Positions 7,411-14,546 of a stretch of DNA of 38,282 nt are shown in pieces; the first letter of the stretch is position 1; each line of letters begins with the position of its first letter. A model generated the notes under the pieces. That model had not been told where the DNA came from. It was given only the letters and a program-made list of their open reading frames with translations, and made no database searches. The stretch lies in NCBI GenBank assembly GCA_902515765.1, contig CABXVZ010000010.1:1-38282 (forward strand), in the 5' to 3' direction. Both the position numbers and the translations under genes were made by a program. This DNA comes from an uncultured Alphaproteobacteria bacterium. Lineage in GTDB: Bacteria; Pseudomonadota; Alphaproteobacteria; HIMB59.

Positions 7411-8302
7411 ATTTTTTTTGAGATATATAAATACCTATTAAAATAAGTATACTCCCTATGAATTGCACTAATGTTAATTTTTCTTGAAAAAATAAATAAC
7501 CTAATCCCGTAGCTGCAATGGGTTGGATTAGTAAACTAAGAGACGAAGTAGAAGCTGGCAGATAGGCTAAGGCGTGGGTTATAAAAGCTTGTCCCATAAA
7601 TTGACAAACAAAACCTAGTAAAAATAAAACAAGAATAGCATTTAAAGATTGTGGTATAAAGCTACTCTCAAAGAAGAGTGATACTGTTAATAAAATAATT
7701 GAAGAGATGATACCAGAGATAAACATTATCGAAGTAGTATTAAACTTTTTTCTTAACTGACTAATAGTTATAATATAACTTCCATACCAAAGAGCTGTGA
7801 GGACTCCTAACAAATCTCCTAGAAACTGTTGTTTATTAAATTTGAAGCTTTCACCTAAGAGTAAAAACATGCCGCCTAATGAAAAAATAACAGCTATAAA
7901 AAAAAACTTTGAATACTTTTCTTTTAAAAAAAAAAGAGCAAAAATAATAACAACTACTGGAGCAAGATTTGATAAAAAAGTAGCTTTAGATACTGTAGTT
8001 AGTTTGATGGACCAGTGCCAACAAATTAAATCAAGCGCAAAAAATATTCCTGACATAATAAAAACTAGATAATGATTTTTGACTGTTGGAATTTTGATCT
8101 TATCAATAGAGCTTATTGAAGAGAAAAGTAAAAAAAAAGGGAGACTTAGAAAAATTCTATAAAAGGCAGTTATTATTGGGTCAACGTCTGAAATTCTTAC
8201 GAATATTGGAGAAAAGGCTATTGAAAGTGCCCCTAAGACTAAAACAAAGAATGGGCTAATTTTAAATTTAAGCAAAAACCTCTTCAGACTTTTCTTTTTC
8301 AA
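7400..8302 (-). CDS. EamA-family (DMT superfamily) transporter
   Basis: A 300-residue inner-membrane protein with ten hydrophobic helices formed by two EamA repeats. The first includes ALSIAFSPIFVRISDVDPIITAFYR, the second GLGYLFFQEKLTLVQFIGSILILIGIY near the C-terminus. The (F/L)xEK motif at the repeat ends is typical of drug/metabolite exporters. Many members export amino acids or metabolites. The substrate here is unknown, although a gene two places downstream is an amino-acid dehydrogenase. The start overlaps the end of the upstream MFS gene by 35 bases and the stop overlaps mutT, which marks a tightly packed operon. Confidence 0.85.
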   Translation of the reverse strand: MKKKSLKRFLLKFKISPFFVLVLGALSIAFSPIFVRISDVDPIITAFYRIFLSLPFFLLFSSISSIDKIKIPTVKNHYLVFIMSGIFFALDLICWHWSIKLTTVSKATFLSNLAPVVVIIFALFFLKEKYSKFFFIAVIFSLGGMFLLLGESFKFNKQQFLGDLLGVLTALWYGSYIITISQLRKKFNTTSIMFISGIISSIILLTVSLFFESSFIPQSLNAILVLFLLGFVCQFMGQAFITHALAYLPASTSSLSLLIQPIAATGLGYLFFQEKLTLVQFIGSILILIGIYISQKKYEK

Positions 8303-9464
8303 TTATTGGAAAATGAATAATGGCAGAAAATAAAGATATTATAATTGCTAAAATCCAAGCAATATCTAATGACCCGTAAAAATCTATGACTAGACCTCCA
8401 ACAAAAGACCCAAGAAAGGCTCCTGCTTGGTGGGACACCATCACAATTCCAAAAAGTGTTGAGAGATAACGAGTTCCAAATCGATTTGCCACAATACCAG
8501 ATGTTGGTGGAACAGTAGAAAGCCATAAAAGTCCCATAACACAACTAAAAGCAATAATCATAAAATTGGTAGTAGGTAATATTAAAATAAATAATATAGC
8601 TATACTTCTTGCAAAATAGATAAACGATAAGATAAATTTTTTCTTGATAATACCTGAGACCCTACCCGATATTAAAGTACCCATCATGTTAAATATACCA
8701 ACTAGCGTAAGCCCTGTTGCGGCGATTGTAGTTTCAAGACCGTTTAACTTTGCAAAGGTTGGGAGGTAATTTGAGATTAAGGCCACATGAAGACCACACA
8801 CAAAGAAACCTAAAATTAGAAATTGGTAGCTTTTATCTTTAAATGCCTTTTTAATGACATCACTAATTTTTCGTTTAGTAAATTCTTGTTTATTTTTTTT
8901 TAAAGGCTTAGGTATAAAAAAGATAAACGATAAAGGAATCATAAATAAAAAAAAAGTTGCTGTAATTTGAAAAGAAAGGCTCCATTGAAATGTAGAGACA
9001 AGAAACTGATTTATAGGTGTAAATATGAACATTCCTGAAGCAGCTATTGACATTAAAATACCTGTAACCGTGCTCTGTGTTTTGTCATCATCGAAATATT
9101 TCGATACTCCACCTATAATAACTGGGACTGAGATAATTCCTGCTGATAAGCCCCCTATTACCCCAAATCCAAATAAAAAATGAAGAGGATCTATTGCAAA
9201 AGAGGTGAGATAAAAACTTAATGAGACACCAATAAAACCGACCGATAATGTTTTTACGTAACCTTTTTGCTCAGCAAATGCCCCAGCAATGGGAGACATG
9301 GATCCCCAAAGTAAGTTGAATATTCCATAGGTTAGACCAATTAATGATGCTCCAAAGGCAGTTGAACTTAATAAATCAGGAACATATATGCCCAAAGACA
9401 TTCTAAATCCATTACCAACACACAGGATAGACCCTGCTGTTAATATGAGAAAGAACATTTTCAT
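8268..9464 (-). CDS. Major facilitator superfamily transporter
   Basis: A 398-residue, twelve-helix secondary transporter. Between helices 2 and 3 lies GAFAEQKGYVKTL, the loop position of the MFS A-motif, and the second half has GRVSGIIKKKF in the equivalent loop. A central cytoplasmic loop around 190-210 is Lys-rich (KPLKKNKQEFTKRK). The subfamily resembles monocarboxylate/oxalate-formate type permeases, but the substrate cannot be assigned. It is the first gene of the five-gene minus-strand operon that continues with the EamA transporter, mutT, the dehydrogenase and the small membrane protein. Its promoter must lie in the 73-base spacer before the divergent small basic gene. Confidence 0.85.
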   Translation of the reverse strand: MKMFFLILTAGSILCVGNGFRMSLGIYVPDLLSSTAFGASLIGLTYGIFNLLWGSMSPIAGAFAEQKGYVKTLSVGFIGVSLSFYLTSFAIDPLHFLFGFGVIGGLSAGIISVPVIIGGVSKYFDDDKTQSTVTGILMSIAASGMFIFTPINQFLVSTFQWSLSFQITATFFLFMIPLSFIFFIPKPLKKNKQEFTKRKISDVIKKAFKDKSYQFLILGFFVCGLHVALISNYLPTFAKLNGLETTIAATGLTLVGIFNMMGTLISGRVSGIIKKKFILSFIYFARSIAILFILILPTTNFMIIAFSCVMGLLWLSTVPPTSGIVANRFGTRYLSTLFGIVMVSHQAGAFLGSFVGGLVIDFYGSLDIAWILAIIISLFSAIIHFPIIEKEKSEEVFA

Positions 9465-9500: not shown

Positions 9501-9529
9501 TTTATTTTTATTAGTAAAATGAATATAGT
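9501..9529 (+). promoter_or_regulatory. Candidate sigma-70 promoter placing the 27-residue ORF on a near-leaderless mRNA
   Basis: TTTATT at 9501-9506 and TATAGT at 9524-9529 are 17 bases apart. The -10 element matches TATAAT in five of six positions, but the -35 is weak. Transcription would begin about 7 bases after the -10, within a base or two of the ATG at 9538. No Shine-Dalgarno sequence is visible between them, so a leaderless or nearly leaderless message fits. In AT-rich sequence such hexamers arise easily by chance. Confidence 0.35.
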
Positions 9530-9537
9530 GCCTCGCT

Positions 9538-9621
9538 ATGGGTTACCCAAAAAAGCATCGTGGACGCAGAAAAATTGGTTCACGCAAACGTCGCGCTAAA
9601 AGAAGAGCTAAAAAGAAGTAA
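9538..9621 (+). CDS. 27-residue highly basic small protein
   Basis: A small frame beginning ATG GGT TAC CCA and ending in TAA encodes MGYPKKHRGRRKIGSRKRRA and then seven more mostly basic residues. Seventeen of 27 residues are Lys or Arg. Codon use differs from the surroundings: CGT and CGC arginine codons are frequent, as in highly expressed genes, while the flanks are very AT-rich. Composition resembles tiny ribosome-associated proteins such as bTHX and the basic core of the COX24/mS38 family. I cannot claim homology to either. A role in binding rRNA or another nucleic acid is inference. It sits divergently from the MFS gene and converges on the TPR gene 25 bases downstream. Confidence 0.6.
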   Translation: MGYPKKHRGRRKIGSRKRRAKRRAKKK

Positions 9622-9645: not shown

Positions 9646-10149
9646 TTAATTAAGAAGTTTGTTGAGATCTTTGTATTCGCTACTTTTATCACCAGCAACC
9701 AATTTTATTCTATTTAATAAAACTAAGGCTTCATCTCTACGATCAGTTTCAACATATAACTCTCCTAAATATTCTAGTGCACCAATATGGTTTTTATCAA
9801 AAGAGAGTGCTTTTAAATAATAGTTTTCAGCATCTTTATAATTAGGTATTTTTTGTTTTCTTGAAGCAAAGCCCATGTAGTTATATAAATCTGCGCTTGT
9901 GTAACCAAAAGGGGTTTCTTCTTCAATAGATTTAAGAGTTTTTAAACCCTTTTCATATTTTTTTTTATAAATTAGTTTTTTTGCTCTATGGAATTCAACA
10001 TTAACATCTATAGATTTGCTAGTTCTCTCATTAGAACTGGAGCTATTAGTGCTGTTTCCACTATTAGAGCTACTTCCACTATCAGTACCTGCGGAAAATG
10101 ACAAAGAGCCGAATGAAATAAGACATAAGGACGCTAGAATTTTCAACAT
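9646..10149 (-). CDS. Exported tetratricopeptide-repeat protein
   Basis: A 167-residue protein with a signal peptide (MLKILASLCLISFGSLSFSA, cleavage likely after SFSA at residue 20) and a Ser/Asn/Gly-rich low-complexity linker (about 21-45). About three TPR-like helical pairs follow from residue 50. GYTSADLYNYMGFASRKQ, DAENYYLKALSFDKNHIGALEYLGELYVE and RDEALVLLNRIK show the alternating large and small positions of the repeat. It probably acts as a periplasmic scaffold or partner-binding protein. It is transcribed divergently from msrB with only 22 bases between the proposed starts, so the two share a very compact promoter region. Confidence 0.75.
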   Translation of the reverse strand: MLKILASLCLISFGSLSFSAGTDSGSSSNSGNSTNSSSSNERTSKSIDVNVEFHRAKKLIYKKKYEKGLKTLKSIEEETPFGYTSADLYNYMGFASRKQKIPNYKDAENYYLKALSFDKNHIGALEYLGELYVETDRRDEALVLLNRIKLVAGDKSSEYKDLNKLLN

Positions 10150-13118: not shown

Positions 13119-14546
13119 ATGAGTGATCAATATATTTTTTGGGATTTAGAAACCACTGGTCGAAATGATAAATTTAATCAAATTACACAAGTTGGTGCGG
13201 TTCTTACTAATCAAAATTTTGAAGTAAAAGACAAATTAGAAATTCACTCTAAACTCCGTGAAGGAAAATGGTTTGAGCCAGGTGCACTTATTACAACAGG
13301 AGTTGATCCTATAAGCTTATATAAAAATAATTATCCAAACTATTATGAAGCTAGTGCCCAACTTTACGAGACATTTCAACAATGGTCTTCTTCTTCAACT
13401 ATCTTTATTGGTTTTAATAATATTAATTTTGATGAGCCCTTCTTAAGGCAGGCTTTATATCAAAACTTGATGCCTGAAATTTATATGACAGTGACTAATA
13501 ACAATGTTCGAATGGACGTTTTTGATATTTTAAGATTGGTATCTGTTTATAGTCCCGAACATATCAAATTTAATACCGATGATCATGGGTATCCTATTTT
13601 AAAATTAGAAGAAATAGTTAAAAAAAATAATATATCTGTTAGTTATGAAGCAGGACCGCATGATGCAGTATTTGATAGTTTAGTTACTTTAGAACTAAAT
13701 AAAATTTTATCAATACGATGTCCCCAAATATGGAATGCAGCATATGAATTTCGTTTAAGAGATACACCAAAAAAGTTTATGCTTAGTAATCCTGTATTCA
13801 CAAATACTACTTTTTGGGGAAGGAGACCAACTATAAAGGCACAAACTTTAATAGCAGGTATTCCAAGTAGAAATCATAATTACCTTGTATTTAATTTACT
13901 TTTCGACCCTAGAAAACTTAATGATTTAGATGATAAAGAATTAACTAAAAGAATGACTGATGGAACAAAGAGAATTTGTGAGGTTTTTGATGGTTCAAAA
14001 TCTAAAACACTATTAAATGAAAGTTACTGCTTTAAAGATAGTAAATTTGCTGAAATTGGTGTGAATGAATTAAGAGCGCGTGCTAATTTTATTAAAAATA
14101 ATGAAGATTTTTGTTCTCGTTTAATAAAACTCTATTTAGTCAATCAAAAAGAATGGCCAGAACCATTTCATATAGAGGATAGAATTTTTGAAAGTTTCCC
14201 ATCTCATCAAGATAAAAAGTTGATGATTGATTTTCATACATCACCTAATAATAAGAAGTATGAAATATCAAAACAATTCAAAGATGATCGCTATAAAGAA
14301 ATTGCTATTCGTATATTATATGAAATAGCACCTCAAACACTGCCTGAGCTAGAAAAAAATAATTACGAATTAGAAATAAAAGAGCGTTTCAATGATAACG
14401 ATAAAGTAAAATGGAATTCTAAAAACAAAATACTTGCTAGTCTTGAAACTGATATTGATAAAATGATATCTGATGAAAGTGAAAAAATTGAATTCAAGCA
14501 GAGAGTAATTACTTTTTTAAATACTGAGTCAGCAAAATGGGACTGA
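13119..14546 (+). CDS. sbcB: Exodeoxyribonuclease I
   Basis: A 475-residue single-strand-specific 3'-5' DNA exonuclease of the ExoI family, used in recombination and mismatch repair. The DEDDh catalytic set is visible: D9 and E11 in FWDLETTGR, an Asp in FNNINFDEPFLRQALY, and the His/Asp pair five apart in GPHDAVFDSL. The C-terminal SH3-like and helical extension characteristic of ExoI follows, including the NPVFTNTTFWGRRP stretch. Length matches E. coli ExoI (475). It is a single-gene unit on the plus strand, facing the convergent rmlA-like gene. ExoI is best known from Gammaproteobacteria, so its presence is a point for checking the lineage. Confidence 0.93.
   Translation: MSDQYIFWDLETTGRNDKFNQITQVGAVLTNQNFEVKDKLEIHSKLREGKWFEPGALITTGVDPISLYKNNYPNYYEASAQLYETFQQWSSSSTIFIGFNNINFDEPFLRQALYQNLMPEIYMTVTNNNVRMDVFDILRLVSVYSPEHIKFNTDDHGYPILKLEEIVKKNNISVSYEAGPHDAVFDSLVTLELNKILSIRCPQIWNAAYEFRLRDTPKKFMLSNPVFTNTTFWGRRPTIKAQTLIAGIPSRNHNYLVFNLLFDPRKLNDLDDKELTKRMTDGTKRICEVFDGSKSKTLLNESYCFKDSKFAEIGVNELRARANFIKNNEDFCSRLIKLYLVNQKEWPEPFHIEDRIFESFPSHQDKKLMIDFHTSPNNKKYEISKQFKDDRYKEIAIRILYEIAPQTLPELEKNNYELEIKERFNDNDKVKWNSKNKILASLETDIDKMISDESEKIEFKQRVITFLNTESAKWD

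What the first reader, a model, noticed from the sequence alone, without database searches (positions are those of the whole stretch)
9501..9621. Near-leaderless gene for a 27-residue, two-thirds basic protein
ATG at 9538 lies eight bases after a TATAGT -10-like box with no ribosome site, and the frame MGYPKKHRGRR...KKK has Lys/Arg at most positions. CGT/CGC codons stand out against the AT-rich flanks, as in highly expressed genes. It may be an overlooked tiny ribosomal or RNA-binding protein similar in character to bTHX or the COX24/mS38 core.
Basis: partly seen in the sequence, partly recalled or inferred. Interest (0 to 1): 0.65.

Follow-up and report, generated by a model that had tools for sequence, protein, structure and literature searches.

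The report
Overlooked 27-residue basic protein gene
A previously unnamed 27-amino-acid, extremely basic protein is encoded in nearly every genome of two of the ocean's most abundant bacterial groups, hardly changes in sequence, and is also carried by viruses of bacteria, which points to a tiny ribosomal or RNA-binding part that annotation has missed.

Summary
Window 9538-9621(+) encodes MGYPKKHRGRRKIGSRKRRAKRRAKKK (16 of 27 Lys/Arg), eight bases after TATAGT. The gene is real: matches in 126 of 162 genomes of the window's order and 20 of 20 that are >=90% complete, and in 202 of 248 Pelagibacterales (SAR11) genomes. Within the window's family, 0 of 26 second codon positions vary while 22 of 26 third positions do. 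SAR11 copies carry a Shine-Dalgarno-like motif in 92 of 102 distinct upstream regions, against 21 of 183 other genes there. Twenty-six IMG/VR viral contigs and a few Gemmatimonadota encode 28-40-residue versions with the motif M[GSAP]YP[KR]KHRGRRKxGS. No Pfam, NCBIfam, PHROGs or PDB match was found. It is not bTHX, bS22/COX24, eL41 or bL37 by sequence: similarity to each is no better than shuffled. Best explanation, inferred only: an accessory ribosomal (rRNA-binding) microprotein, core in SAR11 and the HIMB59-like order, that viruses carry much as they carry bS21. No expression or ribosome data were available.

The parts
9538..9621 (+). 27-codon gene (ATG to TAA), MGYPKKHRGRRKIGSRKRRAKRRAKKK
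   Evidence: same frame in 41 of 52 family and 126 of 162 order genomes, purifying selection
9524..9529 (+). TATAGT, -10-like box, 8 bases before ATG; TATAGT/TATTAT-like with the same spacing in the relatives' upstream regions
   Evidence: 24 distinct upstream regions of the family; inference from consensus, no transcript data
9501..9506 (+). weak -35-like TTTATT, 17 bases before the -10-like box, in a conserved T-rich block
   Evidence: weak inference. The relatives in family f2 have a clear TTGACT in the matching place
8268..9464 (-). divergently oriented MFS transporter (PF07690), context; homologues lie near the 27-aa gene in other lineages too
9646..10149 (-). convergent TPR protein, the downstream neighbour (context only)

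Best explanation
The frame is a real gene for a 27-residue microprotein of a so far unnamed family (motif M[GSAP]YP[KR]KHRGRRKxGS, then a Lys/Arg-rich tail). Most likely the peptide binds ribosomal RNA as an accessory ribosomal protein, in the manner of bTHX, bS22/mS38 or eL41: an invariant N-terminal half (Tyr3, Pro4, His7, Gly9, Gly14, Ser15 with Lys/Arg) fits one rRNA pocket and the basic tail neutralises nearby phosphates. Viruses carry longer-tailed copies, by analogy with virus-borne bS21, to modify or supply host ribosomes. Shown: gene, conservation, distribution, viral copies, translation signals in SAR11. Inferred: ribosome binding, site and effect.
For: Core gene: 20 of 20 order genomes at >=90% completeness; 126 of 150 such genomes of Pelagibacterales, where the 20 misses that were listed (of 46) are 18 genomes of one sister family (f218) and two f84 genomes, and those two also lack the adjacent mnmA gene, so the locus is probably not assembled. 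Near-invariance of non-basic residues: 13 invariant columns in 18 diverse sequences, 39 of 41 family proteins identical, pN/pS 0.07-0.10: a precise binding surface rather than only charge. Translation and codon signals: SD-like motif in 92 of 102 SAR11 upstream regions against 21 of 183 other genes; CGY Arg codons; TTGACT...TATA promoter-like block in f2. One copy per genome, own promoter-like region, different gene neighbourhoods. 26 viral contigs in at least five gene contexts. Viral ribosomal proteins, bS21 above all, are common in aquatic viruses (PMC6375957, passages), and pelagimyophages carry bS21 (PMC7029224, passages; HTVC008M annotation). THX and COX24_C do not match above cut-off in the 12 HIMB59-like/SAR11 genomes tested, so those sites may be free. 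AlphaFold2 gives one helix, residues 5-34, mean pLDDT 83, for a 35-aa viral homologue, compatible with an eL41-type helix but not diagnostic.
Against: No direct evidence of expression, ribosome association or rRNA binding. No profile or sequence link to any known ribosomal protein. No consistent linkage to translation genes (mnmA beside it in SAR11 is a tRNA-modification gene, but convergent). Absent from a sister family of SAR11 (f218: 18 listed genomes without a match; no short basic frame of this kind beside mnmA in the nine loci read), so it is dispensable to a related ribosome. A DNA- or RNA-binding role of another kind would show the same composition.
Confidence: 0.6

Rival explanations
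1. A nucleoid- or RNA-condensing peptide (protamine-like or RNA chaperone) that binds nucleic acid by charge; the viral copies help to package or protect the phage genome.
For: 59% Lys/Arg, no acidic residue; viral copies have longer, freely varying basic tails; one viral group has it between head-region genes next to GroES, the portal and the major head protein.
Against: Charge-driven condensing proteins need not keep Y, P, H, G, G, S fixed; here 13 columns are invariant between SAR11, the HIMB59-like order, Gemmatimonadota and viruses. Another viral group has it among early DNA-metabolism genes, others beside dCMP deaminase or DUF3310-type genes, so it is not a fixed virion gene. The stretches read from relatives HTVC023P, HTVC027P and 023Pt_psg01 lack the motif.
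Confidence: 0.15
2. A regulator of another universal machine (RNA polymerase, translation factor, RNase) that phages also use to take over the host.
For: Viral carriage in several unrelated contexts and strict conservation of the N-terminal half fit a partner that is conserved across phyla.
Against: Only basic and a few neutral residues; no hydrophobic face for protein docking; no linkage to genes of such a machine.
Confidence: 0.15
3. A virus-derived gene fixed in SAR11 and the HIMB59-like order, now selfish or defensive (for instance against superinfecting phages or as an antimicrobial peptide).
For: Patchy in Gemmatimonadota (5 credible of 249); viral copies L203/L210/L212 share residues 1-25 with the f2 family protein; the gene lies at different loci in the three lineages. 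bS22 and bL37 of Cutibacterium acnes inhibit some bacteria when applied to cells (PMC10085706, passages).
Against: Defence genes usually vary and are lost often; this one is near-universal in the window's order and in Pelagibacteraceae and almost invariant. No signal peptide is seen. DNA identity between the viral and host copies compared is at most 62 of 75 bases, so no recent transfer was seen.
Confidence: 0.07
4. Not a protein gene: a chance frame or a small RNA.
For: Very short; no expression data.
Against: No variable second codon position among 24 distinct DNA sequences of the family against 22 of 26 variable third positions; no RNA structure beyond shuffles (z = +0.86); no Rfam match; SD placement in SAR11.
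Confidence: 0.01

Closest known systems
bTHX (30S ribosomal protein Thx, PF17070)
   Same: 27 residues including Met in Thermus, starts MG, highly basic, small-subunit ribosomal peptide
   Different: No match of PF17070 in seven HIMB59-like genomes, including the window's own, and only hits below the cut-off in four of five SAR11 genomes; alignment no better than shuffled copies; a Gemmatimonadales genome encodes both
bS22 / mS38 / AURKAIP1-COX24_C (PF08213)
   Same: 33-residue helical basic peptide in actinobacterial 30S subunits; about the same composition
   Different: No match over the cut-off in 18 genomes; alignment no better than shuffled; lacks the motif of this family
eL41 (eS32)
   Same: 25-residue basic single helix bound to the small subunit near h27/h44/h45 (PMC7005279, passages)
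   Different: No PDB sequence hit of the profile or the peptide at E <= 10; shuffle test not significant locally for 6 of 6 variants (one global P = 0.04 among the 72 tests)
bL37 (actinobacteria)
   Same: 24-residue basic ribosomal peptide recognised through structures
   Different: Large-subunit site (PMC10085706, passages); shuffle test not significant
virus-encoded bS21
   Same: small basic ribosomal protein carried by aquatic phages as well as hosts (PMC6375957, passages; HTVC008M)
   Different: Different sequence family; the bacteria have their own bS21 in addition (17 of 18 genomes)

Membership tests
bTHX (PF17070) | scores above the family cut-off | tested here: not met
   no HIMB59-like or SAR11 genome over the cut-off; the window genome has no match at E <= 10; no Pfam family for the peptide
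bTHX (PF17070) | MGKGDxxTxRGKxxRGTYGKxRP core | tested here: not met
   (core as read there) and 66: scores within the shuffled range
bTHX (PF17070) | bound in the 30S head (recalled) | not testable with these tools
   needs ribosome structure or mass spectrometry
bS22/mS38 (PF08213, COX24_C) | scores above the family cut-off | tested here: not met
   0 of 18 genomes over the cut-off
bS22/mS38 (PF08213, COX24_C) | sequence similarity beyond composition to solved bS22 chains | tested here: not met
   P 0.22-0.86 against shuffles
eL41/eS32 | sequence similarity to solved chains | tested here: not met
eL41/eS32 | single basic helix | tested here: inconclusive
   helix 5-34 predicted for a 35-aa viral homologue; many Lys/Arg-rich peptides may give this
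bL37 | sequence similarity to solved chains | tested here: not met
ribosomal protein (any) | present in purified ribosomes | not testable with these tools
   no proteomics; a full tryptic digest would leave nothing longer than MGYPK

The most novel reading that the evidence does not exclude
A new ribosomal protein of bacteria, among the smallest known, is a core ribosome part in SAR11 and the HIMB59-like order and is carried by viruses, of these and of other bacteria, as a translation-takeover gene; it was missed because it is too short to annotate and yields no usable tryptic peptide. Its presence in Pelagibacteraceae and the HIMB59-like order, but not in SAR11 family f218 or in the other Alphaproteobacteria sampled, also makes it a shared mark, inherited or transferred by phage, in the disputed link between HIMB59 and SAR11.
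Probability: 0.45. Interest if true: 0.88.

Novelty: new variant of a known kind. Interest (0 to 1): 0.72.

Why it matters
[quoted passage not shown] A near-invariant core protein in them without any family record is a gap in a well-studied reduced gene set. If ribosomal, it would add a component to bacterial ribosomes and a virus-borne ribosomal protein to the known list, and it can be tested at once in cultured SAR11. The family also bears on whether HIMB59 belongs with SAR11 (controversy stated in PMC10308909 and PMC3815206, passages).

Tried and rejected
Membership in bTHX, bS22/COX24, eL41, bL37: tested and rejected by sequence. Phage records in INPHARED: tblastn of a 33-aa viral version found nothing at E <= 10, but BLAST's low-complexity filter may hide so basic a peptide, so this is not counted as absence; relatives of the viral neighbours were found instead and five regions read, none with the motif; two more searches with L210 neighbours gave no close relative. 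A looser viral pattern gave 4 more contigs, none a member. Structured RNA: rejected. A special leaderless status: rejected as distinguishing, since SD-like motifs are rare in general; -10-like boxes close to start codons were counted too, but the related contexts are not independent and I draw no conclusion. Weak class-level matches at E 0.02-1 were judged noise; 19 were inspected in the locus orientation given, so some were read on the wrong strand; the judgement rests mainly on their E-values and partial matches. G1120 (E = 0.0076) and G784 (E = 0.0016, 572-aa frame) were also set aside as noise. Literature: searches for the motif string (none) and for small proteins or ribosomal proteins of this kind listed no report of it; only openly licensed papers are held.

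Full report
What is there. The window (38,282 bp, contig 10 of an incomplete 0.96-Mb genome) holds at 9538-9621(+) an ATG frame of 27 codons, MGYPKKHRGRRKIGSRKRRAKRRAKKK, between a divergent MFS transporter gene and a convergent TPR-protein gene. TATAGT stands eight bases before the ATG. The peptide has 16 Lys/Arg and one His, pI about 12. It is the only frame of its kind in the window and none arose in 60 resampled windows.

Whose genome. The relative G001 is one contig of 1,410,127 bp, which I recall as the size of the strain HIMB59 genome (recalled, not from a call; the genome paper was not held). I therefore read the order as HIMB59/AEGEAN-169, with two families here called f1 (the window's) and f2. 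Family f84 is read as Pelagibacteraceae (SAR11): upstream sequences equal those of named Pelagibacteraceae loci, for instance L035 and L082.

It is a gene. The frame matches in 41 of 52 genomes of the family (39 identical, 2 with one change), 126 of 162 of the order and 20 of 20 at >=90% completeness. In Pelagibacterales 202 of 248 genomes (>=80% complete) match; of the 46 misses 20 are listed, 18 of them in family f218 and two in f84. Those two f84 genomes also lack a match to mnmA, which lies next to the frame in SAR11, so their locus is probably not assembled. Nine of ten f218 genomes tested do have mnmA, with no frame of this kind beside it in the nine loci: f218 appears truly to lack it at that place. 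Among 387 class genomes drawn evenly, 11 matches are unmistakable (six in the own order, five in f84; E <= 2.2e-5) and the genomes behind the other 51 (E >= 0.026) look like noise. Among 398 genomes of the phylum only the window's own and one f84 genome match well.

Selection acts on the protein. Distinct sequences by codon position, variable 1st/2nd/3rd positions of 26 codons: f1 8/0/22 (24 DNA variants), f2 7/2/20 (21), f84 12/9/25 (115). pN/pS is 0.075, 0.070 and 0.098 (pN is inflated by paths between the AGR and CGN codons of Arg). The transcript shows no structure beyond shuffles and there is no Rfam family.

Expression signals. In f2 the upstream region has TTGACT, about 16 bases, TATA and then the ATG about 11 bases on; in f1 the -10-like box is eight bases from the ATG; SD-like 4-mers occur in 0 of 24 (f1) and 0 of 16 (f2) distinct upstream regions. 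But SD-like motifs are rare for all genes there: 7 of 104 (f1 loci), 13 of 82 (f2), 21 of 183 (SAR11) (the contexts are related, so these are not independent). SAR11 copies are an exception: 92 of 102 distinct upstream regions have one. Arg codons are CGY-rich in the window copy (5 of 8 against 16%, P = 0.004).

Family and distribution. In IMG/VR it gave 26 contigs, all with a short frame that starts with ATG or GTG and then [GSAP]YPKKHRGRRK. By neighbours and sequence I sort them into a group of 12 (read in L199 and L221: portal, major head protein, GroES; relatives of Pelagibacter phages HTVC023P and HTVC027P at about 52% portal identity), a group of 9 (read in five: PD-(D/E)XK exonuclease, HNH endonuclease) and five single contexts, among them one near a DUF3310-type gene whose best relative is HTVC008M and one in a 96.9-kb contig beside dCMP deaminase. 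The stretches read from the named relatives lack the motif. In Gemmatimonadota 5 of 249 genomes have credible copies (a sixth match is noise), in ordinary chromosomal surroundings in L091 and L131. Thirteen columns are invariant in 18 diverse sequences. No Pfam, NCBIfam, PHROGs or PDB match.

Known families. bTHX: PF17070 finds no true THX in the HIMB59-like or SAR11 genomes tested, whereas Gemmatimonadales genome G543 has a clear THX (E = 1.2e-8; [24 protein letters not shown]...) besides this protein. COX24_C: none over the cut-off in 18 genomes. bS21 is present in 17 of 18, the miss being the 64%-complete window genome. Local and global alignment to THX, bS22, eL41 and bL37 does not exceed shuffled copies; one of 72 comparisons has P < 0.05. 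AlphaFold2 predicts one helix, residues 5-34, for a 35-aa viral homologue.

How it most likely works. The fixed neutral residues (Tyr3, Pro4, Gly9, Gly14, Ser15) among invariant Lys/Arg/His argue for a shape-specific RNA pocket; the same half is kept in SAR11, the HIMB59-like order, Gemmatimonadota and viruses, so the partner should be conserved across phyla; the tail varies in length as a charge-neutralising extension would. rRNA fits best, and tiny basic peptides of this kind sit in ribosomes elsewhere: bS22 (33 aa) and bL37 (24 aa) in actinobacteria and eL41 in archaea and eukaryotes, with the eL41 site described as vacant in bacteria apart from bS22 (PMC7005279 and PMC10085706, passages). 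Viral carriage resembles that of bS21 (PMC6375957 and PMC7029224, passages). Ribosome binding itself is not shown. The absence from f218 shows that it is not universally needed.

Origin. The gene lies at different places in f1, f2 and f84, each time as a single gene. MFS transporters lie one to three genes away in the f1 loci, in four of the five f2 loci and in two of the four f84 loci listed; the five compared are 34-43% identical between lineages, a hint of a common ancestral locus or of chance. Common descent, phage-borne transfer, or both remain open.

Noticed in passing
upstream regions of genes in the window and in HIMB59-like and SAR11 loci: Shine-Dalgarno-like motifs are rare in all three lineages, so translation there seems mostly SD-independent; the 27-aa gene of SAR11 is an exception.
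   Followed up: partly
window 8268-9464 and loci L225, L228, L231, L233: MFS transporters of one subfamily (34-43% identical between lineages) lie within a few genes of the 27-aa gene in f1, f2 and part of f84.
   Followed up: partly
window 13119-14546: Protein with an exonuclease I C-terminal domain (PF08411, E = 1.6e-13), which I recall as a mainly gammaproteobacterial gene (sbcB), here in an alphaproteobacterium.
   Followed up: no
G543, G559, G745 (Gemmatimonadota): Each of the three genomes has two bS21 matches over the cut-off.
   Followed up: no
L203, L210, L212 (IMG/VR contigs): Viral copies share the first 25 residues with the f2 family protein, though DNA identity is at most 62 of 75 bases, which hints at a HIMB59/AEGEAN-169-type host.
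   Followed up: partly
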